IMG/VR virus record: IMGVR_UViG_3300017971_000250 | Location: 1 to 64,000 of that record | Source: a virus | Strand: one strand, 5' to 3' | Length of the DNA stretch: 64,000 bases | In this document: one piece after another, positions 5,531 to 25,621 of the stretch | Position numbering within the stretch: the first letter of the stretch is position 1 | Layout: each line of letters opens with the position of its first letter | Notes under the pieces: generated by a model | What the model was told of the DNA's origin: nothing | Databases searched by the model: none | Seen by the model: only the letters and a program-made list of their open reading frames with translations | Translations under genes and position numbers: made by a program

Positions 5531-5544
5531 AACGCCCTCCCTGG

Positions 5545-6312: not shown

Positions 6313-6554
6313 CAGTCGTCGGCTTCCTTGAGTCGAAGCCCCTTGATCGCCGTGAAGAGAAAGCGCTCGGAATTGTTGAGCACCGCCTGGTACGGCAGGT
6401 CAGCCGTCACGCCCTGAATCTCGATCGGTTTGAACTCGACGCCCGTCAGGCGGTCGTCCTTGCGGATGAACCCGTCGTGCGTCAGAAGCACGATCTTCTG
6501 CCCGATCAGCATCCCCAAATCAATCTGCCACTGAATCGTTACCTTGTTCGGCAT
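6312..6554 (-). CDS. Hypothetical 80-residue protein
   Basis: A compact protein with alternating hydrophobic strands (QKIVLLTHDGF, LTGVEFKPIEIQGV, ERFLFTAIKGLRL) suggesting a small beta-barrel or Sm/OB-like fold. A GGGGGCGAGG sequence precedes the ATG. It overlaps the zinc-protein gene upstream, and its TGA overlaps the methyltransferase ATG. No family is recognised. Confidence 0.65.
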   Translation of the reverse strand: MPNKVTIQWQIDLGMLIGQKIVLLTHDGFIRKDDRLTGVEFKPIEIQGVTADLPYQAVLNNSERFLFTAIKGLRLKEADD

Positions 6555-6759
6555 CGGCCTCGCCCCCCTTGTTCCGCTTGACCTTGTTTGCGCATTCCTC
6601 GCTACACCACATCTTCGAACGCGGGATATCGCACCCGCACGAAAGGCAGCGCGCGATCTTGAAGATACTCAATCGGCCCTGCTCCCGTAGCTGCCGGAAG
6701 AGGGTCAACTCGTCGCCCACGCAATAGGGTCTCTCTAGTTTTTTCTCGGTGCTTCCCAT
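6520..6759 (-). CDS. Small zinc-ribbon/FCS-like protein
   Basis: A 79-residue protein with CLSCGCDIPRSKMWCSEEC in the middle, a CxxC...CxxxC treble-clef or FCS-type zinc finger, and a basic C-terminus followed by an acidic tail. I chose the ATG at 6759 because GGAGGGG precedes it; the longer frame upstream reads poorly. Such proteins in phages often bind nucleic acid or protein partners, but the target is unknown. Confidence 0.65.
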   Translation of the reverse strand: MGSTEKKLERPYCVGDELTLFRQLREQGRLSIFKIARCLSCGCDIPRSKMWCSEECANKVKRNKGGEADAEQGNDSVAD

Positions 6760-7142
6760 GTCAAATCCCCTCCGCAGTCGTAGACCCGGAAATTGCAACA
6801 TGGCTGCTGCACCCGCTTCGTCGGCGTGTCGCAATTGCGATCACGCAACTGAACCGACGGAGATCCGTTCGTGCCAACCCTGATCCGGACCGCCTGTTCT
6901 CCCGTCATGGCGTAAAGCTCGATGTAGGACACGCCTCCGTCAGAGACAGTCCAAAGCCCCCGCAACGAACCGCCCGCATCGACTAGCTCGAATCGCTGCG
7001 CGCGGACGACGCCCGAATCGGCCGTGGCGATGTGAACCTGGACCGCGAGGACGCCCACGAACACCAACGCCGCAATCCCCACCGCAACAAGAGACCCCAC
7101 GTACCGACGGAGCCATCTCTGATGTCTAAGTAACTCGTTCAT
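6735..7142 (-). CDS. Membrane-anchored beta-rich protein
   Basis: A 135-residue protein. A basic N-terminus (RHQRWLRRYV) precedes a transmembrane helix at about residues 16-37 (VGSLVAVGIAALVFVGVLAV). An exported beta-rich domain follows (RAQRFELVDAGGSLRGLWTV...). It resembles small membrane-anchored proteins in which a short helix carries a repeated V.A..F.LVD..G..R beta domain. A cluster of four cysteines near the C-terminus may form disulphides. It overlaps the glycosylase stop by ATGA. Confidence 0.6.
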   Translation of the reverse strand: MNELLRHQRWLRRYVGSLVAVGIAALVFVGVLAVQVHIATADSGVVRAQRFELVDAGGSLRGLWTVSDGGVSYIELYAMTGEQAVRIRVGTNGSPSVQLRDRNCDTPTKRVQQPCCNFRVYDCGGDLTWEAPRKN

Positions 7143-7930
7143 CTTGTCTCTCCTTTCACCGCCCGGAGGACCGCACGCAGGTCGGTTCGGAATGACTCCA
7201 ATTCGCCCGCGTTACGGATGCGCCCGGGCAAGAGCGCTGCGGGATGATACGTCGCCAGCACCGGGATCGAATCCGCCTCGTCTCCAGTATCGCAGTCGGG
7301 CGGAAGCCAATTCCCCACGCCCGGGAGCCATTGCCCCCGCCAGCGCGTGATGCCGACCTCTCCCGTCAGCACCGTCAGAGCCGCGCCCCCAAGAGCAAGG
7401 ATAGCCTTCGGACGCGCAGCCTGCACGATTTCCCGAAGGCGCGGCGCGCACGCCTCCACCTCATCCGGCATCGGGATCCGGTTGCCGGGAGGCTTGCAGC
7501 CGAGGACGTTCGTGATGTAGTGCGCAACCACGTCGTTCCACTGTACCTTTAGCTCCCGCATCAGTAGCTCGCCCGCAGGCCCGACGAACGGGAGCCCCTT
7601 CCGATCCTCCTGCGCCCCGGGAGCCTCACCAACAAGCACGACCTCGGCGGGAAGGCCGCCCTTACCATAAACAACATTCGTGCGCCCCTTCGCAAGGCGG
7701 CACCGCTTGCAGGTCGTCCAGTAGCGCATCAGGTCCACCGTCGCGCCCGCCCACTTCATCGAGCCCCGTGCCGAGGTAGGGTTCACTCTCACTTTCCCCT
7801 CCGCATCAAAGTCGAACTGGAAAACCGTAACGTCGTCAACGTCGCGTCCCTCCGAGGGAAAGTAGCCGCGCGCCCTCGTGATCGTAGAGACCGCCCCTTC
7901 GGGTAGGATCAGGTTTGCCGCGGCATCCAC
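7139..7930 (-). CDS. Family 4 (Fe-S) uracil-DNA glycosylase
   Basis: A 263-residue protein. The core begins near residue 70 and has four cysteines placed as in [4Fe-4S] family 4 uracil-DNA glycosylases (CKRCRLA, GCKPPGN, EACAPRL). It also has the active-site motif GEAPGAQED, the PFVGPAGELL segment and the C-terminal ATYHPAALL motif. It excises uracil from DNA, starting base-excision repair. The roughly 65-residue N-terminal extension is atypical and unassigned. AGGTGG precedes the ATG, which lies inside the end of the resolvase gene. In a phage it may protect DNA from cytosine deamination or dUTP misincorporation. Confidence 0.88.
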   Translation of the reverse strand: MDAAANLILPEGAVSTITRARGYFPSEGRDVDDVTVFQFDFDAEGKVRVNPTSARGSMKWAGATVDLMRYWTTCKRCRLAKGRTNVVYGKGGLPAEVVLVGEAPGAQEDRKGLPFVGPAGELLMRELKVQWNDVVAHYITNVLGCKPPGNRIPMPDEVEACAPRLREIVQAARPKAILALGGAALTVLTGEVGITRWRGQWLPGVGNWLPPDCDTGDEADSIPVLATYHPAALLPGRIRNAGELESFRTDLRAVLRAVKGETR

Positions 7931-8640
7931 CTATCATCGGCCACCAACCACTCACGCCCAAGCACACTCACCGGCCGCGCCATCGTCGCACGGTTGAACG
8001 CACGGATCTCCGCCTCCGCCAGGTCCCTCATCTTGATCACGCCCTTACGGAGCAGGTCTTCGGTCCACGCCATGCGCGCAAGGCAGCAAGCGTCAGCGAG
8101 GTCACCGAGCACGGTGTTGACGCCCGCCTGCGTGAGCCCCTTGACGACCGCGACCACCTCGTCCAGCCCTGGCCACCAGCGCTCCACGACGGCCCCGATC
8201 ATCTGCTCAGGCTCGGGATCCCCTTCGTGCGCAGAGAACAACTTGACGTCCATCGGATTGTGCAGTCGCAGCTTCGAGCCGGAGGTGAGCGCCAGGTAGC
8301 GCGCGATCCCGCTGATCGCCGCGATGTCGTGCTGCCCCCGCGTCCGGGAGCCGAAGGCGAACTCCTCGATCGCCACGAAGTCCGGCCGTCGTATCTGGAA
8401 CCAGTGATCGAGTAGCTGCCCCCAAAACTGCAGCCGCGCGACGTGAAGGTAGTCGGGGTCCCTACCGCTCGCCTTCTTCATCTTCGCAACCGGGAGGTGG
8501 TGGCCGCACCCGAGCGCGCCCTTGCGCACCGCCTTCTGGACGTCCGTGACGTAACCGTACCAGGCAGGCTTGCCATCGTCGCCTAGCTCGACGACGGCCC
8601 CGTGATTCGTGCTCAGGTCGTAGCCGTGGAAGCGAGGCAT
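7909..8640 (-). CDS. RuvC-like Holliday junction resolvase
   Basis: A 243-residue protein with RNase H-fold nuclease signatures: a first acidic strand GYDLSTNHGAVVEL near residue 6, a second acid in PDFVAIEEFAFG near residue 88, and a C-terminal DLADACCLARMAW helix supplying the last Asp. Spacing and hydrophobic context match phage RuvC-like crossover-junction endonucleases. It would resolve four-way junctions before packaging, acting with the UvsX-like and UvsW-like proteins of this phage. The start overlaps the upstream stop (TAATG). The divergent middle means the exact subfamily is uncertain. Confidence 0.72.
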   Translation of the reverse strand: MPRFHGYDLSTNHGAVVELGDDGKPAWYGYVTDVQKAVRKGALGCGHHLPVAKMKKASGRDPDYLHVARLQFWGQLLDHWFQIRRPDFVAIEEFAFGSRTRGQHDIAAISGIARYLALTSGSKLRLHNPMDVKLFSAHEGDPEPEQMIGAVVERWWPGLDEVVAVVKGLTQAGVNTVLGDLADACCLARMAWTEDLLRKGVIKMRDLAEAEIRAFNRATMARPVSVLGREWLVADDRWMPRQT

Positions 8641-8939
8641 TATGGCCGCAGCCCTCGTAGCACCGAATCTGCGTCCTCAAGGCTCCGATCGATCCTGTGG
8701 ACCCGCGCGCGTAACTCGGCGAGCCGGTTCATCACCGCCCCAATGTGATCGCTCGGCGGAGGATCCTTCTCGGGATTCATCGCCTTCTCGACCGTCTTCG
8801 GTTCGTCGCGGTCACCGAATGCCGACGCGCGAATCGACCGCGCCCGCTCCTCCAGAGCAGAGACTACCTTGTCGGTCTCTTCGAACTCCGTCCAGACCGT
8901 GCGTGCTCGGCACGCGCCGTCCTGCCCGCCCTCGTACAT
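8640..8939 (-). CDS. Hypothetical helical protein
   Basis: A 99-residue protein. A charged N-terminal half is followed by MNRLAELRARVHRIDRSLEDADSVLRGL, a likely coiled coil. GGAGTG precedes the ATG, and the stop overlaps the resolvase start (TAATG). No family is recognised. Coupling to the resolvase gene hints at a recombination or DNA-processing context, nothing firmer. Confidence 0.6.
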   Translation of the reverse strand: MYEGGQDGACRARTVWTEFEETDKVVSALEERARSIRASAFGDRDEPKTVEKAMNPEKDPPPSDHIGAVMNRLAELRARVHRIDRSLEDADSVLRGLRP

Positions 8940-8954
8940 TTCACTCCTCCCTTC

Positions 8955-9728
8955 TTATGGACCGCTGTCGACGTTCTCCTCGTCGGCGATCACTTCATCG
9001 TCGGCCTTGCCGCCAAGGTTCCCGAAGCGTGTCTCCCTCGGGATCCCGGGGACCTCGACGCCCTGCGCGAGCGCGGGGTCGGACGTCCCGTCTCCAATCG
9101 GATCCCCGCTCCCATCGCCGACCGTAACCGAGTCGCCCCCCGCCCGGTAGGCGACGATCGAATCCGATGCCGCCGCGAAGGCCGCCCGCGTCCCCATCCC
9201 GGTCCCCGAGTAGCCAGCCGACTGCGCCGCCACAAATCCGAGGTTCTGCCGTGCATCCTGGAGCGCGTTCTGGTCTGCCGCCAGGAAGACGAACTGCCAG
9301 CCCCGGACCTCGCGCCGCTGATCAATCATCGCCTGAACCTGATCGCGTTTGTACTCCCGGCTCGCGTTCTCCTGGCCGTCGGTCAGGATCACGACCACGA
9401 CCTTCTCGGGCTGCTCCGCGTCGGGCAGCTTCTCGATATCCTCGTCGAGCGTCGTGATCGCGCGCCCAATCGCATCGTAGAGCGCCGTCTGTCCTCGCGG
9501 CGCGTAGGTGCTCTGGTCCAGGAACGGGACCGCGAGGATCTTCTCGGTCCGGTACGGCTCCTGGTATTCGTGATCGAAGAGAATCAAACTCAGCGTCGCC
9601 TCCCCGGGCGCTACCCGCTGCCCGTGGACGAATCGGTTGAACCCCTCGATCGCGTCGTCCCTGATCGCCGCCATCGATCCAGAGCGGTCGACGACCGCCA
9701 CGATAGCTGTAAGTCCTACCTTCGGCAT
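8955..9728 (-). CDS. von Willebrand A (MIDAS) domain protein
   Basis: A 257-residue protein. The N-terminal 185 residues form a vWA domain with a complete metal site: DRSGSM at about residue 14, the Thr in RGQTALYDAIG near residue 80, and LTDGQENAS near residue 116. The tail is flexible and Gly/Asp-rich. vWA proteins use the bound Mg2+ to bind an acidic partner, often a MoxR-type AAA+ ATPase; the CobS-like ATPase at 30906 is a possible partner. GGAGGG precedes the ATG. Confidence 0.85.
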   Translation of the reverse strand: MPKVGLTAIVAVVDRSGSMAAIRDDAIEGFNRFVHGQRVAPGEATLSLILFDHEYQEPYRTEKILAVPFLDQSTYAPRGQTALYDAIGRAITTLDEDIEKLPDAEQPEKVVVVILTDGQENASREYKRDQVQAMIDQRREVRGWQFVFLAADQNALQDARQNLGFVAAQSAGYSGTGMGTRAAFAAASDSIVAYRAGGDSVTVGDGSGDPIGDGTSDPALAQGVEVPGIPRETRFGNLGGKADDEVIADEENVDSGP

Positions 9729-10223: not shown

Positions 10224-12880
10224 GCCGCCTCCAGAATCGAGACGCCGCCTTCCTTCACCGCCCGGAAGGTCCGCTCGAAGACGTCGCTCATCGCAGGCGC
10301 GTGCGAGATCACCACGATCGAGTGCCGCTTCGCCCGCAGGTGAGTCAGTAGGTCCACGACGCGCGCCTGCCCGGTAGCGTCCAGGCCGTCGAGCGCCTCG
10401 TCCATGATCAGCAGGTCGATGGCCGCCCGCTCGCGCCGGGCAACCAGGTCCATCAGCGCCAGGTCGGCCGCGATGGTTATCTTCCTCCACTGGCCTCCGC
10501 TCGGCTGGACGTTGCCCGCGCCCTCGACGTCGACGACGATGCTGAACTTGTCTCGCTTGCCGCCGCCCTTGAGCGCCGCCTCGGTATCGTAGGCGACCCG
10601 GACATCCCCATCGCTCAAGACCTCCAGGTAGCCGTTCGTCAGGTCGGCAAGCTCGCCGATGATGTCGTCGAGGATCTGACTGCGCAGGCCCTGGTTGCCG
10701 AAGCCGCGCACCCAAAACTCCGCGACCGACACTGCCTCCTCCGCGCGGTCTCGCTCGCCCTTCGCCGCATCAATCTCGCCCGCCAGCCGTTTGCGCTCCT
10801 TCCCCACCGCCGCCAGCCTCTTCGACAATCGCTCTGCTGTCTGCTGCAAGGTCCGCACCTGCTCGGCGACCCCGTCGATCCCGACCAGGTCCCGCCGCGC
10901 CGCTTCGAGTCCATCCCTGATCGCATCCCGATCCTTGACCTCCTGCTCTAGCTCGCGTTCGTCCTCCTCGGCGCTGCTGAGTGCCTTCACCGCAGCCGCA
11001 CGCTCCTTGTCCGCCTTCAATGCCTTGCTCGTATGCGCCGCCGCCGCCCTCTTCAGAGATTCGATCGTGGCCGCGACGGTCTCCGCCCCGGTCGGCGTCC
11101 CGCATTCCGGGCACTTGCCTTCGTCCACGAAGGCCGCAACGCGGTCCAGCTTCTCGGAAGCCGCGCGCGTCTCCGCCTGGCTCGTCTGCCGCAGTCCGGC
11201 GATCTTGCTCGATAGCTCCCGCTGCTGCTGCCGGAGCGCCCGCAGGTCGCCTTCGAGGTCACCGGACTCCTCCAACGTCGCCTCCGCCTCGGAGATTGTT
11301 TCGACCAGCGCCTGACGCCCCGCCGTCCGAACCTTGAGCCGTTCCTGCTGCTCCCGGTTCTCCTGAAGGTCGTCTTTGATGCCCTGAAGGTCCTGCCCCT
11401 GCAACGCGGTCTCCAACGGTACGATCCGCGCCGCCGCCGCGTCGCGCTCGCGCTCGGCTGCGGTCCGCTCAGCCTTCACGAACTCCAGCGCCAGGTCCAG
11501 ACCGTCCAGCCGCAGCACCCGGAAGAGGATCGCCTTGCGCTCGGAGTCGGTCGTGCGAGGCATCGCAAACCGCGAGTGGTCGTCCTGCCCGTAGAGGACT
11601 GTCGAGCGGAAGGTTCGGAAGTCGAGCCCGAGCAGCGCCTCGATCTGTTTCTGCGTCTCGGTCATAACCGGCCGCGTGACGTCCTTGCCCGCGTGGGTCA
11701 GCGTCAGCGTGCCCTGCTTCTTGGTCCTCGTTCGGGTGACGAGGTAGGTCTCCCCATCGACGATAATCTCCTGCGTGCCGACCGCCTCCTTCGCCCCGCG
11801 CCGAATGACCTCCTCGTAGCGGTCGCCTTCGATCGTCTCCCCGAAAACGATCCACGACAGCAGCTTCGGTAGGTGGCTCTTGCCGCTATTATGGACCACA
11901 ACACCATTCGCAATGAAGCTGTCCGCGCCCGGGACAGTTATATCGTACACATCAGCCACTCCAGCGGGCTCAACCGAAAGAACAGTGTGGTTCACCGCCT
12001 CTCGTTCCCGCTTGGCACGGAATAACGCACGCATCGTCTCGCTGCGCTTGCGCCTCGTCTCCACGCTCTGCGCGCGTCTCGAATTCGCTGCGCGCATCCT
12101 CGCCTTCGTTTCGGCCGTATGGTGCTTCCCCTTCATCCCACGAGGATGAATCCCCGTTCTCTGCCACCCCAATTTGCCAGCTCGGTTACGCTCGCTCGTA
12201 TGCTGCGAGAGATGCTCTCCACGATTCTTCCATTCCAGATTCCCAATGGAATGATCGAACGGATTACCGTTCAGATGATGAACCTGCTTGTCCCGGAAAC
12301 GCGGTCCGTGTACGGCCCTGCAGACAAATTGCTGCTCACTCACAGCCTGCGAACGTCCCGTCCAATGAATCAGCGTCCTCCACCCTCCCGCCCCTCTCCG
12401 ATACATCGAACACAATCGATCTCCGGGACGAAGATCCCCCAAAGCCCTCCACGTTTGCCCGTCCGAAAGAAGGACCGGATGATCAGCAGTCCCAACAAGC
12501 TCCTGTGGCGGGATGTATTTTTCACCCTGCCCCGCCCCCTGTCGCGTCGCATACTTCGAAAGCATCACCCGAATCACGGGGGCGGACTTCTTGGTCAAAA
12601 CAACTCGCGAAGCTCTCCGAATCACAATTCGCCCATCCGACCACGCATAAACCCAGGGGCGCTCTCCCACCAAATCCCCGATCGGGATCCCTTTTGGAAA
12701 CCGACGCAGATCGCGTGGACAATCAATCAACGTCTCTCCCACTAAACAGCCGTTCGAGCCCGCCGAGGTGGTGTCGTGATTGTCGCCGTCGATCAGGGTG
12801 AGCCCGGGAAGGCTCCAGTCGAACTCGACCTCTTTGAAGGGACCGAAATCACGCCCGCTCATCTTGCCGAATTGGATCAT
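10220..12880 (-). CDS. sbcC: SbcC/Rad50-like ATPase interrupted by an intein
   Basis: An 886-residue precursor. The Rad50/SbcC ATPase is split inside its P-loop: GSNG (residues 41-44), an intein (45-331), then SGKS (332-335). After splicing, about 599 residues remain: the N-terminal ATPase half, long charged coiled coils, a zinc hook CPEC (590-593), the ABC signature variant SGGQWRK (794-800), and Walker B LLIMDE (823-828) with D-loop and VVISH switch. The family forms a DNA-end-processing nuclease with SbcD/Mre11, which is encoded at 13984-15150. The ATG overlaps the upstream stop. ATPase activity should require splicing, because the insertion destroys the nucleotide-binding loop. Confidence 0.9.
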   Translation of the reverse strand: MIQFGKMSGRDFGPFKEVEFDWSLPGLTLIDGDNHDTTSAGSNGCLVGETLIDCPRDLRRFPKGIPIGDLVGERPWVYAWSDGRIVIRRASRVVLTKKSAPVIRVMLSKYATRQGAGQGEKYIPPQELVGTADHPVLLSDGQTWRALGDLRPGDRLCSMYRRGAGGWRTLIHWTGRSQAVSEQQFVCRAVHGPRFRDKQVHHLNGNPFDHSIGNLEWKNRGEHLSQHTSERNRAGKLGWQRTGIHPRGMKGKHHTAETKARMRAANSRRAQSVETRRKRSETMRALFRAKREREAVNHTVLSVEPAGVADVYDITVPGADSFIANGVVVHNSGKSHLPKLLSWIVFGETIEGDRYEEVIRRGAKEAVGTQEIIVDGETYLVTRTRTKKQGTLTLTHAGKDVTRPVMTETQKQIEALLGLDFRTFRSTVLYGQDDHSRFAMPRTTDSERKAILFRVLRLDGLDLALEFVKAERTAAERERDAAAARIVPLETALQGQDLQGIKDDLQENREQQERLKVRTAGRQALVETISEAEATLEESGDLEGDLRALRQQQRELSSKIAGLRQTSQAETRAASEKLDRVAAFVDEGKCPECGTPTGAETVAATIESLKRAAAAHTSKALKADKERAAAVKALSSAEEDERELEQEVKDRDAIRDGLEAARRDLVGIDGVAEQVRTLQQTAERLSKRLAAVGKERKRLAGEIDAAKGERDRAEEAVSVAEFWVRGFGNQGLRSQILDDIIGELADLTNGYLEVLSDGDVRVAYDTEAALKGGGKRDKFSIVVDVEGAGNVQPSGGQWRKITIAADLALMDLVARRERAAIDLLIMDEALDGLDATGQARVVDLLTHLRAKRHSIVVISHAPAMSDVFERTFRAVKEGGVSILEAA
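11888..12748 (-). mobile_element. Intein with in-frame HNH endonuclease in SbcC P-loop
   Basis: 287 residues. It starts with Cys (CLVGETLIDCPRD, block A) and has block B GTADHPVLLSDGQTWRALGD. It ends with block F/G (VADVYDITVPGADSFIANGVVVHN region), the terminal His-Asn followed by extein Ser. The middle holds an HNH segment (VHHLNGNPFDHSIGNLEWKN) and a NUMOD-like helix (MKGKHHTAETKARMRAANSR), so homing is by an in-frame endonuclease. DNA from about 12150 to 12640 is visibly less GC-rich than its surroundings, as expected of a recent mobile insert. Confidence 0.9.
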
Positions 12881-18074: not shown

Positions 18075-18606
18075 CAGACTCTCCCTTCTTGCGCCGACGC
18101 CGCGAACGCGACATCGCCGCCTCCATCTTGCCCAGTTTCTCTTCCTCGGTCTTCGTGGTCGGCTCATCGCTCGGGTCCTCGCCGACACGACCGTGGATTT
18201 CCTCCGCTCGTTCACGGCCGAGCATCCGCGTCAGGATTTCGGCCTTCTGCCGGAAGCAGTCGAAGAGAACGCGCGCCTTGGCCGCGTTCGATTCAGCCTC
18301 CGCGATGTTGTCCTTCAGGGCTCGGAACGCGGGGTCCTGCTCCATGAAGGCGACCGCCTTCCACTCGGCCGGATCCTTCCCCTTGTCTCCCGTTCCCATC
18401 TGTGCGGTCAGCGCCTGGCCGCGCCAGCTTCGGTACGCGATGTCAGCACGCTCGCGCTCCCCAACCGCCGCCGCCCACACCGCTCCCCAAAACCCCATCT
18501 CCGCACAGACCCTTTGCCGCGCCGCTTCCGGGGAGCCGGTGATCGTTAGCTCCTTCTCGATATCGACGACGTGGGTTTCCCCGTCGACGACCATTTCAAT
18601 CTTCAT
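18040..18606 (-). CDS. UvsY-like recombination mediator (putative)
   Basis: A 188-residue protein starting at the ATG after GGAGG. After a beta-hairpin start (MKIEMVVDGETHVVDIEK), residues 40-160 are helical, with WGAVWAAAVGERERADIAYR, an acidic PAEWKAVAFMEQDPAF stretch, then a helix with ALKDNIAEAESNAAKARVLF. This layout (short helices, Trp-rich start, two antiparallel helices, DP.....L segment) resembles T4 UvsY-type mediators, which load UvsX onto gp32-coated DNA. The C-terminus is basic. The assignment is inferred from pattern and neighbourhood, since the gene overlaps the SSB-like gene and precedes the UvsX-like one. Confidence 0.5.
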   Translation of the reverse strand: MKIEMVVDGETHVVDIEKELTITGSPEAARQRVCAEMGFWGAVWAAAVGERERADIAYRSWRGQALTAQMGTGDKGKDPAEWKAVAFMEQDPAFRALKDNIAEAESNAAKARVLFDCFRQKAEILTRMLGRERAEEIHGRVGEDPSDEPTTKTEEEKLGKMEAAMSRSRRRRKKGESDGGEDETSGES

Positions 18607-18707
18607 CGTGCCCTCCAGCGGGGGCGAGCAGGGGCCGGTTCGAGTCGCCGAGGAACCGATGTGAACCACTGCGCCCGTCGCGGCATCCCTGCTCCCCGCA
18701 TCGTTTG
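18607..18707. other. Intergenic gap, nothing specific
   Basis: About 100 bases between the HU-like and UvsY-like genes. It contains the ribosome-binding site of the UvsY-like gene. A GGTTCGAGTC sequence on the plus strand recalls a tRNA T-arm but has no matching stems. Confidence 0.5.
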
Positions 18708-19040
18708 CTATCCTGTGCCACGCCCTCTTCCCATGAGCCGTCTCCGAACGTGGTCCCGGAGCGACTGGAGCGGTCTGAATCGAAACTCCAGCCCGGCCGG
18801 GACGACGCGGTTTCGGATGCGTCTCGACCCCGGACTAACCGGGACCCGCTGCACCCGCTCCTCGCGGGGCCGACCATAGAAGCGCCCGAACCGAGGTATC
18901 ATCACCTGGCGTCCCGTCAGGACCGCCTCGGTGATTTGCTTGAAGAGCGCCCGCGCCTCATCGGGTTCGACTCCAGCGTCCTCACATAGCTGCGCGAACG
19001 AATAGAGCTTCAGCGATGAGACCTTTCTCGAACGTGGCAT
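18708..19040 (-). CDS. HU/IHF-family DNA-bending protein
   Basis: A 110-residue protein with the HU fold: two N-terminal helices (FAQLCEDAGVEPDEARALFK), then VMIPRFGRFYGR (the IPGFG-type strand), the arm with RIRNRVVPAGLEFRF (compare the R-P-rich arm and IPA..V.F strand of HU), and a C-terminal helix SLRDHVRRRL. It would bend or coat phage DNA during replication or compaction. AAGGAGG precedes the ATG. The gene lies just downstream of the polymerase. Confidence 0.78.
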   Translation of the reverse strand: MPRSRKVSSLKLYSFAQLCEDAGVEPDEARALFKQITEAVLTGRQVMIPRFGRFYGRPREERVQRVPVSPGSRRIRNRVVPAGLEFRFRPLQSLRDHVRRRLMGRGRGTG

Positions 19041-19075
19041 CCTTCTGCCTCCTTCCCTATGTGCGGCCGCTGTCC

Positions 19076-22000
19076 CTACTGGCGCACCTGATCAAACTGG
19101 ATCGGGCAAACTTCGTCGGCAATGCAGATCGCCTCCGCCGCCGTCCAATCCGGCTCCTTCGCGGAATCCACAAGCGCCTGCGAGACTTCGATTTGCCAGC
19201 CGCGCTTGCCGATGCGCGACCACACCTTGGAGAAGTTATCGTGCAGCCATTTCTCATTCGGAACGAGCGCGCGCAACGCGCCCGCCTTCAGGAGCGCCAG
19301 CGCGACGCCACGATGGCAGCGCCGCCGATCGACGCGCTCCGCGAAGTCAACGAAGTCCTGATATGGCTGCGTCTTCACAATCGCGCCGACCGCAGCCGGA
19401 CCGACGCCTTTGATCGTGATCAGGCCCGCAACGATGTCCCGCTTATCGAGCCCCCACGTCCGGCCCGCGAGGTTCACGTCGGGCGGCAGGACGCGCACTC
19501 GCAGTCGTCGCGCCTCGCCCACAAAACGGTTTCGTGCCTCCTCCCCGGGAGTGTGGGTCAGCAGCGCCCACACGAATTCCGTGGGGAAGTAGGTCTTCAA
19601 GTACATCTCCCGGTAGGCGATCAGGCCGTAGGCGGTCGCGTGGCTGTTATGGCTTACGATTCCGTTCGAGAGGGCAAAGAGGTGGGGCGAATCGACTTCG
19701 AGGTCAACCATCGGCCTCGGTCCCAGGGAACGAATCGATACAAGTCGCCGATACAGATAAGGCCCGGCTGCGGATTCCGGATCGCGCTGAGGACCAGATC
19801 GCGACACCACTCCCGCAAATGACCGCCCGTTGTGAAACAATCCAAAGAAATCCGGACCATCGCAAACATCCGCCGGGCCGCCTCCTGATTGAGCATCGCA
19901 TCGCGTTCCAAAACCAGTACCAATCGCTCCTCCCCAAAAATCGGACGAAAGTGATGCAGCCCATCCACCTCGATCCATTCTCCCGGCAAGACGAAATCGA
20001 CCTGTCTCCTTTTCAACCCACATCGCACCTGCGCGTCTCGTCTCGCACCCGGAACTAGATCTGCAATACATTCCTCCAAACGAGACCTTGTACGACGACG
20101 CGACCCGGCCGCCGACATTGCCCGACCTCGCGCAAGAATCGCGGCGATCTTCTCGGGATTCCTGCACCGCCATTCGCGGAGGACTTTCGAACGCCGCTCC
20201 TGAATGTCCGCACGAGCCGAAGTCTTCTTCGCGGTTTCGGATCGAATCCGCTGAAAGCGCTCTCGATACTGATAGCACACCCTCTTCAACGTCTCGGACC
20301 GAATCCGACGACGCACCCCAGGAAACTTCGAGCAAGTCCGAGAATGATTCCATTTCTCCGCTCTGGTTCGAAAAACGAGATCGCAGCACGTCGCCCGCCA
20401 TCCCCCGGGACGTGCTCGGAATGGCCGCCCACGCAACCGCCGCTTTGAAATCAACGACCTGCCGAAGCGACAGGATTCCCTTGTTTGTGAGGAACCGATG
20501 CCCGATCGAACACGTGACTTTCGAACCATCATCGAAGGTTGCCTCCAGTGCCTCAACAAACCCATGGTCATGAACCGCACGAACCGACGCCGGGCGTGCC
20601 CCCCGAGGCCCGCAGACATAGACAAGATCCCCTTGCCGGATTTCGCCCGCAGGTTTCTCTCCATCTGCAGTAGCAACACCCTGTGCGATGTCAACCGATT
20701 TATTGAAGATGTAAGCTCCCGCGTGCATCATCGCCTCGGCCAGGCCCTCCGCCTCCCGCTTCTGCATCCCGCGCGATATCGCGCCATCGACGAATGGCCG
20801 GAGCGCCTTCTTGACCGCCGCCTTGCCGTGCTTCTTACCGACCATCTTGCGGACCTTGTCGGCGTCCTCCGGGGTGTAACCACCTAGCTCGCGCAGCAAT
20901 CGGATCATGTGTTCCTGGTAGATAATCGCGCCCCGGCTCTCACGGCAGATCGATGCCACTATCGGATGCGTCCCCTTTGCCGCCCGGACGCCGATTCGTT
21001 TTCGCTTCCGATAGGTGTCCGAAAGACCGCTGTGCGACACGCCGGGTCGCCCGAGCGCGTTCAGGATAGCGACCTCCTCGAAGCTCTCGAACTTGAGCCC
21101 CTCGCAGAGCCGGTGCGCGAGCGGAGTGTCTAGCTGAAAAATCCCCGCGAGGTTGCGCCGCGTGAACCCCACCAGCACCTTCGGATCGTTCAGACTGATC
21201 GCAGTCAGGTCGGGCGCTCGCTTGCCTCGCCGCTCGATCGCCTCCAGGGCGTCACGGATCACCTTCAGGTTGTGGAGCCCGAGGATGTCCAGCTTGACGA
21301 GCCCGAGCGCCTCGACGCCGTGCATATCGAGCGCCGTGACCGGGACGCGCTCGCCGTTGCTCTCGCGCGACTCCAGGGGGCAAACGTCGACGATCGGCTC
21401 GGGGGAGATCACGACGCCCGCAGGATGAACCGTGAGCGCCTTCGTCGAACCCTCCAGCTTCAGCGCCGTCTCGACGACGGGCGGATACTTCTGTGCGAAC
21501 TTCCTGCAAGCCGCCTCATTCTCAAACGGCCCCTTGAGCCCGCCCTCGTCTATCTCGGTCTGCGTGATGTACTTCTCCGGGATGAGCGGGATCAATTCCT
21601 CGATCTCCCGAATCGGAACCTGGAAAACGCGCCCGACGTCTTTCAGGCACTGCCGCCCGCGCATCGTCGAGCGCGCCGAGATGCGAGCGAAGTGATCGGC
21701 CCCGTAGACCGCCTGCAGATGCGCCAGCACCTCGTCGCGCTGGTCGCTGGCAAAATCACAGTCGATGTCCGGCAGATCGCTGTTTGAAACAAGAATGCCA
21801 CCAGCGAAGTATTCATGCTGGCCCTCTACCGAGAGGTCATAGACGGGACCGGAGAGAACGATTCGTCTGATGCTCGTGATCGTCGCTCGCGCCAGCGAGC
21901 CCATCGCAGCTTGTTCGCGCAACTCAGCGAGCAACATTCCTGACTCCTGGTCACGGGGGCGCGGAACATCGCTCCACACCACACACATGCACGATCGATC

Positions 22001-24274
22001 ATCTTGAACCCGGCATATTTGATGCGTCTGGACGTTTCCACAAGGACATCCGTCAATCCCGCCCCCCTGATACTCCTGACAAAATCGTCCTGATAGAGCA
22101 CCCGTAGGCGATCGCCAAGAAGCCGCTTCGCCAAGATCAGCTTGCGTCCATCCTGACCACGCCATCCCTTCAATTCGTAGAAGAGATCCTCCTGTGGGAG
22201 ATAGAAGTCGGGGCAATACGTCGTCCCGTCTGCCAACCGAAACCGCTCCGCCTCGTATCGGTAGTCCATGCCCATCCGGCGCAACAAACGCGCGAAGTCC
22301 GCCTCCAGCCCTGAACGCACGAAATGGCCCAGGTCGGGACGGTATCCGGCCCGCCCCCGCGAATGCGTTCTTGTTCCTTGCAAAGCCCGCCCACACTTCC
22401 GGGAGCACGCCTTCTGCCGCTTCCCGCCCTTGAATTCCATTCCACAAACACAACACTGTCGATGGTGACTCCGAACAACCGCAAGGTAACGACATCGCTC
22501 GCTGCAATAGATTTGATTCCCAGTCCTGCGACGAAATACTCGGTCGCACCAAGGACATTCCGTTTCGCTCCCCACCTTCACCCACACGGGAGGACGGCTG
22601 CGTTTCGCCGGAGGAATCATCATCGAACGGGTATGGCATCTCCGACTGCAATACTTTCTCTTCTGCGACGGATAGGCCCTGATTGCCATCCCGCAAACAG
22701 GACAGTAGCTCGTCACCAACTTCGAGCTTACAGGCCGCCGCCTTCTCGTACCCTTCTTTGCGCCTGCCTCGCCTGAAGATTCTGTGCCCATAAGTACAGC
22801 GTACTAGAAAAGGCTTTCCGTCGCTAGTCGTTCCTTCGATTTTCACCCCCGGCTCTTTGCCCCACCGCGCATGGCGTGCCAGAACCCGCCGCAAGCCCAT
22901 CCGCGTCCAAACCATCATCCCCGGCCGGACGTCATGGATCGGAAGTGCCCCCACAGAAGTCGACACCAGCGTCTCCCCGGGAAAACACCGCCCGGGAGCG
23001 AGGAAGCGCTCGAACATGAGCCCGTGCCGGATCGGATCGATCTGCGTGATCCCGAGCAGGTAGGCGACCAGGCTGCCACCAACCGAACCGCGCCCCGGCC
23101 CGACCATGATCCCTTCCTGCTTCGCCCAGTCGTAAAGCTCTTTGACCGCGAGGAAGTAGTCGACGACGCCACGCTCTTCGATTGTCGCTAGCTCGTGATT
23201 GAGACGGGTCTCGTATTTGTCGTCCGCCCCATGAAGCAATCCACCGTTCGAGAGATACGCCAGCGCCAACAGGCAGCTTTCCTGTAGATAATCGGCGTGC
23301 GTATGGCCGACCAAGACCTTGATCGGCGGCACGACGGGATCCCGGCGCGGTAGCTCGCTCAGCGCCGCGCACCGTTCGGAGACCTCCCTCGTGCGCAGGA
23401 CAGCCCCGTCCGTAAAGGTCGCCCGCAGCCGGGGATGATTCGCCCTGAACGCCCGGACCATTTCGTCCTGGCTTCGCAGATGATACTCGCGCGTCTTGAG
23501 CCGGAACCTGGTCGGGCTCAGTAGGACGCCATGGGTATGAATCGCAAGCAGCGCTTCCTGGTAACGCCAGTCGTCCGCGTCAGGATAATGCGCGTCCTGT
23601 GTGGCGACCGCAGGAATGCCGAGCGCCTCGCCGATCTCGTAGAGCGCCTCGTTGGCGACCCGTAACTCGTCCAGGTCGTGCGGCATGATTTCCAGATAGA
23701 AGCGGTCGCCGAGCCGCTCCTGGAATTCCTCCGCGAGCGCGATCGCGTCCGAAGTCCGTCCCTGGTTCACCGCCAGCGAAACCGGCCCGACCATGCAACC
23801 GCTCAGAACGATCAGGCCCTCGGAGTGTTTCCAGAACGTCGGCAGGTCCACGCACGGCCGCCAGTGAAATCCCTCCAGCCAGGCGATCGAAGTTAGCCGG
23901 TAGAGATTGCGGAGCCCGGTTTCGTTCATGGCCAGGAGCGTCAGGTGCTGTCTGGTGAGTCCGCGCCGCTCCTCTTCAGCCTTCAGGATTTCGCGCCGCC
24001 TCCGGTACGGGGTCCCTTTGGTGATCTCTTTGATCTCTTCCTTCGAGAACCCGCGCCACGCCATGTCCTCGATCACATAAAGCTCGACGCCGAAGATCGG
24101 CCGGATGCCGAGACGCTGCGCCGCCTTGTCGAAGTCGTGAATCCCGCGCAGCGTGCCGTGCTCCGTAGTCGCGATCGCGTCGTGACGCATTTCGAGCGCC
24201 CGCTTGATGAACGCGGCAGGCTTCCTGAAACCGTCGAATCCCGTGTGATCGGTGTGAACGTGAAGATGAATCAT
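19076..24274 (-). CDS. dnaE: DNA polymerase III alpha (DnaE-type) with two inteins
   Basis: A 1732-residue precursor from the ATG at 24274 (ATGA overlap, AGGA upstream); the exteins total about 979 residues. The N-terminal PHP domain begins HLHVHTDHTGFDG, and ATTEHGTL follows. The palm has GPGRGSVGGS (from residue 392) and the catalytic PDIDCDF (835-841). Intein 1 (430-831) splits R from SDLPDID, next to the catalytic aspartates. Intein 2 (1193-1543) splits FNK from SHATAYGL. Later parts include a helix-hairpin-helix-like ITIKGVGPAAVGAI. It is the replicative polymerase. Both inteins must splice out to restore it. The extein is shorter than bacterial DnaE (about 1160), as is usual in phages. 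Confidence 0.93.
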   Translation of the reverse strand: MIHLHVHTDHTGFDGFRKPAAFIKRALEMRHDAIATTEHGTLRGIHDFDKAAQRLGIRPIFGVELYVIEDMAWRGFSKEEIKEITKGTPYRRRREILKAEEERRGLTRQHLTLLAMNETGLRNLYRLTSIAWLEGFHWRPCVDLPTFWKHSEGLIVLSGCMVGPVSLAVNQGRTSDAIALAEEFQERLGDRFYLEIMPHDLDELRVANEALYEIGEALGIPAVATQDAHYPDADDWRYQEALLAIHTHGVLLSPTRFRLKTREYHLRSQDEMVRAFRANHPRLRATFTDGAVLRTREVSERCAALSELPRRDPVVPPIKVLVGHTHADYLQESCLLALAYLSNGGLLHGADDKYETRLNHELATIEERGVVDYFLAVKELYDWAKQEGIMVGPGRGSVGGSLVAYLLGITQIDPIRHGLMFERFLAPGRCFPGETLVSTSVGALPIHDVRPGMMVWTRMGLRRVLARHARWGKEPGVKIEGTTSDGKPFLVRCTYGHRIFRRGRRKEGYEKAAACKLEVGDELLSCLRDGNQGLSVAEEKVLQSEMPYPFDDDSSGETQPSSRVGEGGERNGMSLVRPSISSQDWESNLLQRAMSLPCGCSESPSTVLCLWNGIQGREAAEGVLPEVWAGFARNKNAFAGAGRIPSRPGPFRAFRAGGGLRAFVAPDGHGLPIRGGAVSVGRRDDVLPRLLSPTGGSLLRIEGMAWSGWTQADLGEAASWRSPTGALSGRFCQEYQGGGIDGCPCGNVQTHQICRVQDDRSCMCVVWSDVPRPRDQESGMLLAELREQAAMGSLARATITSIRRIVLSGPVYDLSVEGQHEYFAGGILVSNSDLPDIDCDFASDQRDEVLAHLQAVYGADHFARISARSTMRGRQCLKDVGRVFQVPIREIEELIPLIPEKYITQTEIDEGGLKGPFENEAACRKFAQKYPPVVETALKLEGSTKALTVHPAGVVISPEPIVDVCPLESRESNGERVPVTALDMHGVEALGLVKLDILGLHNLKVIRDALEAIERRGKRAPDLTAISLNDPKVLVGFTRRNLAGIFQLDTPLAHRLCEGLKFESFEEVAILNALGRPGVSHSGLSDTYRKRKRIGVRAAKGTHPIVASICRESRGAIIYQEHMIRLLRELGGYTPEDADKVRKMVGKKHGKAAVKKALRPFVDGAISRGMQKREAEGLAEAMMHAGAYIFNKSVDIAQGVATADGEKPAGEIRQGDLVYVCGPRGARPASVRAVHDHGFVEALEATFDDGSKVTCSIGHRFLTNKGILSLRQVVDFKAAVAWAAIPSTSRGMAGDVLRSRFSNQSGEMESFSDLLEVSWGASSDSVRDVEEGVLSVSRALSADSIRNREEDFGSCGHSGAAFESPPRMAVQESREDRRDSCARSGNVGGRVASSYKVSFGGMYCRSSSGCETRRAGAMWVEKETGRFRLAGRMDRGGWAASLSSDFWGGAIGTGFGTRCDAQSGGGPADVCDGPDFFGLFHNGRSFAGVVSRSGPQRDPESAAGPYLYRRLVSIRSLGPRPMVDLEVDSPHLFALSNGIVSHNSHATAYGLIAYREMYLKTYFPTEFVWALLTHTPGEEARNRFVGEARRLRVRVLPPDVNLAGRTWGLDKRDIVAGLITIKGVGPAAVGAIVKTQPYQDFVDFAERVDRRRCHRGVALALLKAGALRALVPNEKWLHDNFSKVWSRIGKRGWQIEVSQALVDSAKEPDWTAAEAICIADEVCPIQFDQVRQ
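19646..20698 (-). mobile_element. DnaE intein 2 (351 residues)
   Basis: It starts with Ser (SVDIAQGVATADGEKPAGEI, block A), has block B KVTCSIGHRFLTNKGILSLR, and ends MVDLEVDSPHLFALSNGIVSHN followed by extein Ser. Ser instead of Cys at position 1 is less common but known. The stretch between about 20450 and 19790 is open in the intein frame but not protein-like; the +1 frame there encodes a nuclease. The insertion site, FNK/SHATAYGL, is a highly conserved DnaE motif. Confidence 0.88.
19654..20694 (-). CDS. Nested +1-frame VSR/EDxHD-like homing endonuclease
   Basis: An open frame of 346 codons nearly coextensive with intein 2, again one base out of phase with dnaE. Protein-like sequence begins about 20360 (RRRIRSETLKRVCYQYRERF...), with Arg-rich helices reminiscent of homing-enzyme DNA-binding repeats. 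A nuclease core follows: RRQVDFVLPGEWIEVDGLHHF, then VLERDAMLNQEAARRMFAMVRIS. The VDF...E.DG..H arrangement matches very-short-patch-repair (EDxHD) homing enzymes. The first 110 codons look like a shadow of the intein, so the real start is probably an internal codon (for example GTG or TTG around 20290-20320). No strong ribosome-binding site was found. Confidence 0.7.
   Translation of the reverse strand: MTSHRVLLLQMERNLRAKSGKGILSMSAGLGGHARRRFVRFMTMGLLRHWRQPSMMVRKSRVRSGIGSSQTRESCRFGRSLISKRRLRGRPFRARPGGWRATCCDLVFRTRAEKWNHSRTCSKFPGVRRRIRSETLKRVCYQYRERFQRIRSETAKKTSARADIQERRSKVLREWRCRNPEKIAAILARGRAMSAAGSRRRTRSRLEECIADLVPGARRDAQVRCGLKRRQVDFVLPGEWIEVDGLHHFRPIFGEERLVLVLERDAMLNQEAARRMFAMVRISLDCFTTGGHLREWCRDLVLSAIRNPQPGLICIGDLYRFVPWDRGRWLTSKSIRPTSLPSRTES
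21782..22987 (-). mobile_element. DnaE intein 1 (402 residues)
   Basis: It starts CFPGETLVSTSVGALPIHDV (block A) and continues with a block B-like LVRCTYGHRIFRRGRRKE and LEVGDELL. It ends VYDLSVEGQHEYFAGGILVSN followed by extein Ser, so the penultimate residue is Ser instead of His. Between about 22700 and 21900 the intein frame is open but compositionally unlike protein (Ser/Gly/Pro-rich, no domain). The +1 frame over the same DNA encodes a convincing endonuclease. The insertion point is immediately before the polymerase catalytic PDID motif, a strongly conserved site typical of homing targets. Confidence 0.88.
21826..22791 (-). CDS. Nested +1-frame PD-(D/E)XK homing endonuclease
   Basis: A 321-residue frame inside intein 1, one base out of phase with dnaE. 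It carries four Cys4-type fingers: CPVC...CSRRC, CPWC...CSERC, CCVC...CSRKC near the N-terminus, and CVWC...CSLSC at the end. Between them lies a nuclease core, LEADFARLLRRMGMDYRYEAE, with CPDFYLP and then YELKGW (PD-x-ExK) and a downstream Lys. This is the pattern of small homing and repair nucleases. The ATG at 22791 has no good ribosome-binding site; TTG/GTG near 22725 just before the first finger are alternatives. DNA is less GC-rich than in the exteins. It is presumably the homing enzyme for the surrounding intein. Confidence 0.8.
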   Translation of the reverse strand: MGTESSGEAGAKKGTRRRRPVSSKLVTSYCPVCGMAIRAYPSQKRKYCSRRCHTRSMMIPPAKRSRPPVWVKVGSETECPWCDRVFRRRTGNQIYCSERCRYLAVVRSHHRQCCVCGMEFKGGKRQKACSRKCGRALQGTRTHSRGRAGYRPDLGHFVRSGLEADFARLLRRMGMDYRYEAERFRLADGTTYCPDFYLPQEDLFYELKGWRGQDGRKLILAKRLLGDRLRVLYQDDFVRSIRGAGLTDVLVETSRRIKYAGFKMIDRACVWCGAMFRAPVTRSQECCSLSCANKLRWARWRERRSRASDESFSPVPSMTSR

Positions 24275-24798
24275 GGCGTCTGTGTTCCTATGTGACCGAG
24301 AGGCACCACGCGCATCTTGAGCTTGCCGCTCGGAGATCGCGGGGCGGTGTGGTTCAACCACGCCTCGACGATATCGCGTAGCTCGGCGGGAAAGGTCTCG
24401 GTCAGCATCCACTCCAGATAGCCGCGCCCTTCCTGTGGATCACTCGCTAGCTCTGAAACGCTGTGCCCCGCATGGCGACCGAATTGGAGAATCGCATCAG
24501 TCGGCACACCCCCGAGCGTCGACGGCACAATCGCATAGTTTGCCCGGGGACGCTGCTTCCCGCGCGATCCGGGAACCTTACTCTCTCTCATCGCTGAAAG
24601 GTCCACGGCGCGATTCGGTGTCTTCACAACCCGGTCACCTTCCTGCCCGCCCATCCCCTCGATCAGATCCTTGAGTTGGGCTTCCGAATCCTTCTCGTCC
24701 GCCGTTGCTCCTGGAACCGCGTCGTCGCCGCCTTCGTCCTTCTTCTTGGGGAGGAACTTGCGGCGCATCTCGTCGAGTGATTTGCCTTCAGCGCTCAT
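24271..24798 (-). CDS. Protein with exonuclease-X-like C-terminal domain
   Basis: 175 residues from an ATG preceded by GGAGG. It begins MSAEGKSLDEMRRKFLPKKK; the SLDEMRRKFLPK element reappears in the next gene upstream. An Arg/Lys linker (SRGKQRPRANY) precedes a C-terminal domain, LQFGRHAGHSVSELA...GYLEWML. That is the small FGKHKG...YL.WLL domain found at the end of ExoX-type exonucleases and in DUF3820 proteins. Being translationally coupled to DnaE (ATGA), it may act at the replication fork; this is inference. Confidence 0.65.
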   Translation of the reverse strand: MSAEGKSLDEMRRKFLPKKKDEGGDDAVPGATADEKDSEAQLKDLIEGMGGQEGDRVVKTPNRAVDLSAMRESKVPGSRGKQRPRANYAIVPSTLGGVPTDAILQFGRHAGHSVSELASDPQEGRGYLEWMLTETFPAELRDIVEAWLNHTAPRSPSGKLKMRVVPLGHIGTQTP

Positions 24799-24799
24799 C

Positions 24800-25621
24800 T
24801 CACCAAGCCCTCCTGATTGCTTTCCCGACGCCCGCGAGCCACTTCCACTGCTTGACCGTTGCGACGTCCAATTCCGATGCCGGGGGCGGGGCCTCGGATG
24901 GGAGTCCTTTGATCTTGGCGGCATCGACCTTGAGCGGGGGGAGGTTATTGAAGGCACCAGCGTGCAGCGCGCCCTGAAGTGCGCGGGCGGCCTTTCCCCG
25001 TAAATGCTTCTCAAAACTATCCTTCTCTCCCTGCGCGACCCATCGGTCCTCGATCGCCTTCTCCGCCAGCATCGCAGACGCGACGCCGATCAGGTATTCG
25101 AAGAGGCCCTCCAACGTACCGGCCGCCGCCCCCACGAGCGAAGACTCGTCGATCTTGATGAAGCCCGCGAGGTCCGGCTTGCCGCGTCCGCTGAGCCCAA
25201 ACCGAAACGAATAACAATCCTCCATCGGGATCCGCTCGACCTGGACCGTCATGTTCATCGCGTGGCCGGGACCGCCGTCCCATTGATTCCTCGTCTTCGG
25301 GAACATCCCCTCGACTGACGTGCCGATCTGGCCCGCCGCACTGGCGACCGCCTTGATCGCTTCGGCAGCCTGCTGGACCGTCGCTCCCGACTGAGCAGCC
25401 AACTGTGCCGCTTGCCGCACACGCTCTTCTAGCTTCTGCCGCTTCCTCTCCTCCGCGCGCGCCGAACGTAGCTCTCTCGCCTTCGCGCGTTCCTCGCGCA
25501 GCTTGCGGCCCTGCTCCTCGCGCACCTTGCGCGCGGCTTCCTCGGCGACCTTCTCGGCAGCGATCTCCTCCTCCGTCTTCGGGAGGAACTGTCGCCGCAT
25601 TTCCTCGATCGTCTTTCCCAT
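24800..25621 (-). CDS. Coiled-coil protein sharing an N-terminal EMRRQFLPK motif
   Basis: A 273-residue protein. It starts MGKTIEEMRRQFLPKTEEEI, a near copy of the start of the next gene. A very charged coiled coil (KVREEQGRKLREERAKARE...) runs to about residue 75, then an Ala/Gln-rich segment and a globular domain with RIPMEDCYSFRFGLSG and DLAGFIKIDESSLVG. The ATG at 25621 overlaps the upstream TGA (TGATG) after GAGGAG. The gene lies between unknown genes and dnaE. The function is unknown; a shared docking peptide is the best clue. Confidence 0.65.
   Translation of the reverse strand: MGKTIEEMRRQFLPKTEEEIAAEKVAEEAARKVREEQGRKLREERAKARELRSARAEERKRQKLEERVRQAAQLAAQSGATVQQAAEAIKAVASAAGQIGTSVEGMFPKTRNQWDGGPGHAMNMTVQVERIPMEDCYSFRFGLSGRGKPDLAGFIKIDESSLVGAAAGTLEGLFEYLIGVASAMLAEKAIEDRWVAQGEKDSFEKHLRGKAARALQGALHAGAFNNLPPLKVDAAKIKGLPSEAPPPASELDVATVKQWKWLAGVGKAIRRAW

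What the first reader, a model, noticed from the sequence alone, without database searches (positions are those of the whole stretch)
21782..22987. DnaE intein 1 carries its homing endonuclease in the +1 frame
Seen: the dnaE frame runs unbroken through a 402-residue intein with good end blocks, but its middle is not protein-like. The +1 frame over the same DNA (21826-22791) encodes four zinc fingers and a PD...ExK nuclease. Usual inteins carry the nuclease in frame between the splicing blocks. Here two proteins would share DNA, with the intein frame kept open as a linker of about 270 residues. The nuclease could be made by internal initiation or by +1 frameshifting. I cannot tell whether this arrangement has been described before.
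Basis: partly seen in the sequence, partly recalled or inferred. Interest (0 to 1): 0.92.

Follow-up and report, generated by a model that had tools for sequence, protein, structure and literature searches.

The report
Inteins hiding nucleases in another frame
Two self-splicing inserts in one phage DNA polymerase gene each encode their DNA-cutting 'homing' enzyme in a shifted reading frame, and over a hundred other phage and prophage inteins turn out to be built the same way, so one stretch of DNA carries a gene that must stay open and a second, hidden gene.

Summary
dnaE (24274-19076, minus strand) carries intein 1 (22987-21782, 402 aa). Its middle encodes, in +1, a protein with four zinc fingers and a T7-endonuclease-I-like core (E-D-ExK aligned). 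A third intein, in a Rad50-like gene, has its HNH in frame.

It is not an indel artefact: 5 of 7 phage-database inteins read, 65 of 80 viral HNH relatives, and 60 of 80 viral inteins of a (biased) survey hide the nuclease out of frame. Across 111 loci the intein frame has 0 stops in the nuclease region, against 245 expected. Substitutions concentrate at nuclease codon position 3; intein-frame amino acids are not conserved. Start codons and some Shine-Dalgarno sites are enriched, slippery heptamers are not: internal initiation, not frameshifting.

At least five nuclease families and both frames are involved. At the intein 1 site other viruses have a split intein with a GIY-YIG gene between the halves, so out-of-frame inteins are plausible intermediates to 'fractured' genes. 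Closest precedent: the ShiLan out-of-frame HNH (2025), not an intein. One unread preprint may overlap.

The parts
19076..24274 (-). dnaE-like DNA polymerase III alpha gene; start ATG at 24274 (MIHLHVHTDHTG...), interrupted by two inteins
   Evidence: Pfam PHP 2e-37, DNA_pol3_alpha 3e-68, finger 9e-30; phrog_405 1.5e-256
21782..22987 (-). Intein 1 in the dnaE frame: Cys1, block B (CTYGH), linker, block F/G (VYDLSVEGQHEYFAGGILVSN), Ser+1; inserted at APGR|...|SDLPDIDCDF
   Evidence: Reading frame; Pfam Intein_splicing 5e-6 in the whole dnaE ORF; same site as split inteins in L016, L021, L045
21826..22791 (-). HEN1 in the +1 frame: three CxxC...CxxxC zinc fingers, T7 endonuclease I-like PD-(D/E)xK core, fourth zinc finger; probable start TTG/GTG at 22719/22716 or ATG 22791
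   Evidence: for homology; for the dual-coding test; for starts
19646..20698 (-). Intein 2 in the dnaE frame, 351 aa, Ser1 ... HN, Ser+1; inserted at IFNK|...|SHATAY
   Evidence: the same site carries in-frame HNH inteins in L046, L047, L049, L050
19654..20532 (-). HEN2 in the +1 frame from ATG 20532: helical region then EDxHD/DUF559-like nuclease (SRLEE...VDFVLP.EWIEVDGLHHF...ERD...MVRI)
   Evidence: hhalign 96.8%, E 2.4e-10 to EDxHD-like phage proteins A3, control 0.2%; aligned with eight relatives at D/IE.DG..H; for the dual-coding test
20541..20547 (-). Shine-Dalgarno sequence (TGGAGG) ahead of HEN2 ATG 20532, inside the intein reading frame
   Evidence: duplex energy -9.3 kcal/mol, like this phage's normal genes
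11888..12748 (-). Third intein (287 aa), in the Walker A of a Rad50/SbcC-like gene, with an in-frame HNH: internal control with the ordinary arrangement
   Evidence: Pfam Intein_splicing 1.1e-11, HNH_3 3.2e-5 in frame; alternative frames closed, 11 and 9 stops

Best explanation
Both dnaE inteins are mobile inteins whose homing endonuclease is a separate gene nested in another reading frame. Shown by sequence: the Hint splicing blocks are in the dnaE frame; the nuclease domains are in the +1 frame; the dnaE frame is free of stops across the nuclease region far beyond chance; in relatives of the design the nuclease frame carries the amino-acid constraint while the intein frame is only kept open. 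Inferred: the ribosome reads dnaE through the intein frame, giving a precursor with a junk linker of about 230-270 residues between Hint-N and Hint-C; the Hint halves still fold together and splice DnaE in cis; the nuclease is made from the same message by internal initiation, cuts intein-less dnaE alleles, and the whole insert is copied in. The design probably arises when a free-standing homing-endonuclease gene with its own start lands in a mini-intein in a frame that leaves the intein open. It would then be one mutation away from a split intein with the nuclease gene between the halves.
For: Two inteins of one gene, unrelated nucleases, same design. Stop avoidance: HEN1/HEN2 0 against 13.4/10.4 expected; 111 HNH-class loci 0 against 245, closed third frame 1787 against 1904; 11 +1-class loci 0 against 120, third frame 157 against 147. 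Substitutions at nuclease codon positions 1/2/3 = 0.25/0.20/0.44; over 91 pairs intein-frame identity 0.389 is close to that of the closed frame, 0.371. Internal initiation: ATG/GTG between the upstream stop and the HNH domain in 107 of 110 loci against 27% in controls, slippery heptamers 9% against 14%; strong Shine-Dalgarno 16% against 2%; HEN2 SD. Series from free-standing genes beside terL through nested to split inteins with the nuclease gene between or overlapping the halves. Pfam hits for out-of-frame nucleases: HNH_3 3e-14, LAGLIDADG_2 1e-21, DUF559 3e-16.
Against: No close relative of either window intein was found, so the comparative tests come from homologous designs, not from these two. 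Splicing, nuclease activity and translation are untested. HEN1 has no convincing Shine-Dalgarno site at any start that keeps all zinc fingers. HEN2 passes no Pfam threshold by itself. AlphaFold models were too poor to use. Without a relative, decay of one of the two nucleases in this phage cannot be excluded.
Confidence: 0.86

Rival explanations
1. Sequencing or assembly indels: each intein really carries its nuclease in frame and paired errors shift it.
For: Single metagenomic contig; no reads available to check.
Against: Would need two compensating indels in each of two inteins and would leave the intein frame open by luck (P=0.0012 and 0.0028 even under phage codon usage). The same design is in isolate genomes (Tetrasphaera phage TJE1, Xanthomonas FoX3, Acinetobacter Highwayman) and in more than 100 loci. 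The third intein of the same contig is normally in frame.
Confidence: 0.02
2. The nuclease is made by programmed frameshifting from the intein frame, as a Hint-N/nuclease fusion.
For: Each nuclease family keeps one fixed relative frame (HNH_3 class nearly all +2; EDxHD-zinc-finger class +1). HEN1 lacks a good Shine-Dalgarno site.
Against: Start codons are strongly enriched and -1 slippery heptamers are not; in the HNH class the nuclease frame is closed shortly upstream of the domain (median region 69 nt). Strong SD sites in many loci and in HEN2. A fixed frame is also expected from common descent.
Confidence: 0.08
3. The intein frame is not used in cis: message or protein is processed (for example trans-splicing, or a group I intron), and the open frame is incidental.
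For: Split inteins with a GIY-YIG gene between the halves occur at the same dnaE site in other viruses.
Against: Zero stops against hundreds expected means the open frame is selected. No Rfam intron or other RNA in 18500-25000. Both Hint parts are on one uninterrupted ORF.
Confidence: 0.04
4. The nuclease ORFs of this phage are decaying relics of former functional nucleases.
For: No close relatives of HEN1/HEN2 to measure constraint; HEN1 start unclear.
Against: Catalytic residues and zinc ligands are intact over about 300 codons; in relatives of the design the nuclease frame is under constraint.
Confidence: 0.08

Closest known systems
ShiLan domain (Arsenault, Gosselin, Gogarten 2025, PMC11855218)
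   Same: An insert open in the host-gene frame with an HNH homing endonuclease with zinc fingers in another frame; way of translating it unknown
   Different: It has no splicing domain, so the insert is thought to stay in the methylase. Here Hint splicing blocks flank the nuclease, the host genes are other and often essential, and several unrelated nuclease families are involved
Fractured genes: split inteins with a free-standing homing endonuclease gene between the halves (Dassa et al. 2009, from memory; paper not held)
   Same: The nuclease is a separate gene lying where the in-frame domain would be; same dnaE site 1 in L016, L021, L045 with a GIY-YIG nuclease
   Different: Here the intein is one unbroken ORF through the nuclease gene, so cis splicing should be kept
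Ordinary HEN-containing inteins (LAGLIDADG or HNH in frame)
   Same: Hint blocks A, B, F, G; nuclease between B and F; conserved insertion sites
   Different: Nuclease in the same frame, excised as a bifunctional protein; here two proteins from two frames
Bacteriophage T7 endonuclease I
   Same: HEN1 core aligns with the catalytic residues (E-D-ExK)
   Different: HEN1 has four extra zinc fingers and sits out of frame in an intein; T7 endonuclease I is a free-standing junction resolvase
EDxHD / Vsr-like homing endonucleases and DUF559
   Same: HEN2 core D...IEVDG..H...RD and alignment to EDxHD-like phage proteins
   Different: HEN2 lacks zinc fingers, is very divergent and lies in the +1 frame of an intein
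[quoted passage not shown]
   Same: Title suggests unusual intein layouts in phages; could describe out-of-frame nucleases
   Different: Not held, could not be read; overlap unknown

Membership tests
Intein (Hint splicing domain) | Nucleophile at position 1, block B His, block F, C-terminal Asn followed by C/S/T | tested here: met
   Intein 1: C1, TYGH, HEYFAGGILVSN|S; intein 2: S1, SIGH, HLFALSNGIVSHN|S; Pfam Intein_splicing 5e-6 in the full dnaE ORF but below the curated cut-off
Intein (Hint splicing domain) | Insertion at a conserved site of the host protein, extein contiguous | tested here: met
   Sites R|..|SDLPDIDCDF and FNK|..|SHATAY; intein-less relatives L002-L005 align through; same sites used in L016, L021, L045-L047, L049, L050
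Intein (Hint splicing domain) | Protein splicing activity | not testable with these tools
   needs expression
Ordinary HEN-containing intein | Endonuclease domain in the same reading frame between blocks B and F | tested here: not met
   HEN1 and HEN2 are in +1; no nuclease match in the intein frame
ShiLan-type out-of-frame insert | Host-gene frame open, nuclease in another frame | tested here: met
ShiLan-type out-of-frame insert | No detectable splicing domain | tested here: not met
   Hint blocks present
Split intein / fractured gene | Intein halves on separate ORFs with a nuclease gene between | tested here: not met
   single unbroken dnaE ORF; contrast L016, L021, L045, L066, L067
T7 endonuclease I-like PD-(D/E)xK nuclease (HEN1) | Catalytic E, D and ExK in order | tested here: met
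   alignment with 1m0d; phrog_9019 3.8e-12
T7 endonuclease I-like PD-(D/E)xK nuclease (HEN1) | Endonuclease I fold | tested here: inconclusive
   single-sequence AlphaFold model, pLDDT 35
EDxHD / DUF559 nuclease (HEN2) | D...IExDG..H...D motif | tested here: met
   hhalign to A3 96.8%, E 2.4e-10; A4 invariant columns
EDxHD / DUF559 nuclease (HEN2) | Match above a curated family threshold | tested here: not met
   no Pfam nuclease hit to HEN2 itself; relatives hit DUF559
Group I intron with ORF | Intron RNA structure, normally with stops in the host frame | tested here: not met
   no Rfam match; frame open

The most novel reading that the evidence does not exclude
Out-of-frame ('overprinted') homing endonucleases are a standing architecture of phage inteins, evolved several times with unrelated nucleases (HNH_3, zinc-finger HNH, zinc-finger EDxHD, T7 endonuclease I-like, LAGLIDADG) in both alternative frames. 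The nuclease is made by internal initiation, the intein frame is selected only to stay open, and these inteins are an intermediate between mini-inteins plus free-standing nuclease genes and split (fractured) inteins.
Probability: 0.72. Interest if true: 0.88.

Novelty: new variant of a known kind. Interest (0 to 1): 0.83.

Why it matters
The textbook intein is one bifunctional protein. Here the splicing domain and the nuclease are separate genes on the same DNA, one in each frame. HNH-type phage inteins of this kind would be read as inteins with an unknown or degenerate middle, and their nucleases go unannotated. It offers a large natural set of long gene-in-gene overlaps (over 21,000 codons in 111 loci) in which one frame is constrained and the other only kept open. 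It gives a concrete, testable route to split inteins, whose origin is an open question and which are widely used tools, and it shows how a homing nuclease can join an intein without any protein fusion.

Tried and rejected
Close relatives of HEN1 or HEN2 in viral contigs: none. HEN2 in phages: no match at E 0.01, only weak hits for its core, which led to the EDxHD set. DnaE relatives L002-L006 have no inteins. Rfam intron search: nothing. Tandem repeats: none. Pfam for HEN2: no nuclease family; the Stonustoxin_helical hit (E 0.04-0.17) was dismissed as chance. AlphaFold of HEN1 (single sequence, pLDDT 35) and HEN2 (9 sequences, pLDDT 47) were too weak to search with, so no fold search was run. 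Alignment A1 could not be used on genome contigs, so the C-block alignment A2 was used. Considered and rejected: paired sequencing indels; incidental open frames in a GC-rich genome (long open alternative runs do occur in this phage's ordinary genes, but permutation tests on AT-rich loci remove that explanation); group I intron; programmed -1 frameshifting. The survey rates (60/80 viral; 15/79 in genomes by the HNH model, plus five further EDxHD ones found by eye) are biased upward for viruses, because A2 was built mostly from out-of-frame inteins.

Full report
CHECK OF THE OBSERVATION. The window is part of an 84,919-base viral contig. The dnaE-like gene on the minus strand runs unbroken from ATG 24274 to 19076 and has PHP, alpha NTPase and finger domains. 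Intein 1 lies at 22987-21782: 402 codons starting CFPGETLVST and ending HEYFAGGILVSN before Ser+1. The +1 frame is open from 22791 to 21826 and encodes three CxxC...CxxxC knuckles, a nuclease core and a fourth knuckle. The core aligns with T7 endonuclease I in the PDB (E=1.1e-4, catalytic E, D and ExK matched), Pfam Phage_endo_I (1.8e-4, under the cut-off), phrog_9019 (3.8e-12) and, for the fingers, phrog_1271 (2.8e-21). The intein-frame middle matches nothing beyond the splicing blocks.

A SECOND CASE IN THE SAME GENE. Intein 2 (20698-19646, 351 aa, S1...HN|S) also has a long +1 ORF, over nearly its whole length. Its core reads VDFVLPGEWIEVDGLHHFRP...ERDAMLN...MVRI. No library names it, but profile comparison with four EDxHD-like phage proteins (Goe21, BpSp, Eldridge, Staphylococcus 110; A3) gives 96.8% and E 2.4e-10, against 0.2% for an unrelated control sequence, and relatives of that type hit DUF559. 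A Shine-Dalgarno sequence (TGGAGG, -9.3 kcal/mol, like this phage's ordinary genes) stands nine bases before ATG 20532. A third intein, in the Walker A of a Rad50-like gene (12748-11888), has its HNH in frame and both other frames closed: an internal control.

CHANCE. Keeping the HEN proteins fixed and permuting their own synonymous codons gives on average 13.4 (HEN1) and 10.4 (HEN2) stops in the intein frame; none of 20,000 permutations was free of stops. With the phage's general codon usage the probabilities are 0.0012 and 0.0028. Ordinary genes of this phage do contain some long open alternative runs, so by itself this is strong but not final.

THE SAME DESIGN ELSEWHERE. Seven phage-database inteins were read, found with the window's own splicing blocks. 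Five hide the nuclease: terL inteins of Rhodobacteraceae phage LS06, Tetrasphaera phage TJE1, Acinetobacter phage Highwayman and a faecal phage (HNH plus zinc fingers, +2), and a helicase intein of Xanthomonas phage FoX3 (LAGLIDADG_2, Pfam 1e-21, +2); two have LAGLIDADG-like nucleases in frame. An alignment of the HNH proteins found 517 or more relatives in viral contigs; of the best 80, 65 lie in the +2 frame of an ORF that is open through the whole nuclease, with intein blocks at both ends in the ones read, and 15 are not nested. A survey by the C-terminal intein block gave 60 of 80 viral inteins with out-of-frame HNH or zinc-finger matches and no in-frame HNH of this family. In bacterial and archaeal genomes 15 of 79 had such matches, and reading the sequences showed further EDxHD ones, while archaeal inteins (Thermococcus and others) have in-frame LAGLIDADG or no hit. 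A second group in the +1 frame, as in the window, is zinc fingers plus EDxHD/DUF559 in DEAH/SNF2-type helicase inteins (L181, L260, L282, L287, L288, L292, L304, L306; DUF559 up to 3.5e-16) and zinc fingers plus HNH in terL (L190, L261, L273). These survey rates are biased, because the block alignment came mostly from out-of-frame inteins.

SELECTION. In 111 unique HNH-class loci (21,372 nuclease codons) the intein frame has 0 stops against 245 expected by synonymous permutation; the third frame has 1787 against 1904. In 11 loci of the +1 class, 0 against 120, third frame 157 against 147. In 16 disjoint pairs substitutions at nuclease codon positions 1, 2, 3 are 0.25, 0.20, 0.44; over 91 pairs the intein-frame amino-acid identity (0.389) is hardly better than in the closed frame (0.371). 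So the nuclease is the constrained protein and the intein frame is merely kept open. The zero count is partly by choice of loci (nested ones were taken by their open frame), but that 65 of 80 relatives qualify is itself the result.

EXPRESSION. Between the last stop and the HNH domain (median 69 nt) 107 of 110 loci have an ATG or GTG, against 27% of control stretches; slippery heptamers are not enriched (9% against 14%). Strong Shine-Dalgarno matches occur in 16% against 2%, some perfect, and in several +1-class loci. Internal initiation is therefore favoured; many loci, HEN1 among them, lack a recognisable SD, so another signal or coupling may be needed.

EVOLUTIONARY SERIES. Relatives of the HNH stand free beside terL in BP10, EauM-23, FBPa53, CL2, SN1, PhiSTP1 and Poludnitsa. 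In Vibrio phage 1.245.O and Brochothrix BL3 the terL intein is split, with HNH coding between or overlapping the halves. At the very site of window intein 1, viruses L016, L021 and L045 have a split DnaE intein with a GIY-YIG gene between the halves, overlapping them by a few bases in L016; at the site of intein 2, L046, L047, L049 and L050 have in-frame HNH. Free-standing gene, nested out-of-frame gene and fractured gene thus form a series; the direction is inference.

KNOWN OR NEW. The nearest description is the ShiLan domain, an out-of-frame HNH insert in a phage methylase without any splicing domain (PMC11855218), and an out-of-frame HNH in a methylase of phage Applejack (PMC12613952). Ten full-text searches found no description of inteins with out-of-frame nucleases, but the library lacks most subscription papers and all bioRxiv; one preprint on 'non-canonical architecture' of actinophage inteins could overlap (not held). 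I therefore call it a new variant of a known kind.

Noticed in passing
window 12748-11888 (-), in gene 12880-10220: Third intein of this phage, in the Walker A of a Rad50/SbcC-like gene, ordinary type with in-frame HNH.
   Followed up: yes
window 30909-30247, 50743-50273 and 58427-57900 (all -): Three free-standing HNH homing-endonuclease-like genes with zinc-binding motifs (Pfam HNH 3.7e-10, HNH_3 8.9e-8 and 9.8e-11).
   Followed up: partly
L016:1735-5670, L021 reverse complement 5423-9359, L045:4983-8960: Viral DnaE fractured at the same site as window intein 1: split intein with a GIY-YIG/NUMOD3 gene between the halves.
   Followed up: partly
L066 and L067: Vibrio phage 1.245.O and Brochothrix phage BL3 terL genes look like split inteins with HNH coding between or overlapping the halves; annotated only as hypothetical or hint proteins.
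   Followed up: partly
L048, about 7588 on the reverse complement: Another dnaE ORF that begins with what looks like an intein C-terminal part at the FNK|S site (possible split intein).
   Followed up: no
L260, L282, L287, L288, L292, L304, L306: Bacterial helicase (DEAH/SNF2-type) inteins with zinc-finger plus DUF559 nucleases in the +1 frame; a distinct family worth its own census.
   Followed up: partly
L145:227-3778: A terL gene with two inteins: an in-frame LAGLIDADG-like one first, then one with out-of-frame HNH.
   Followed up: no
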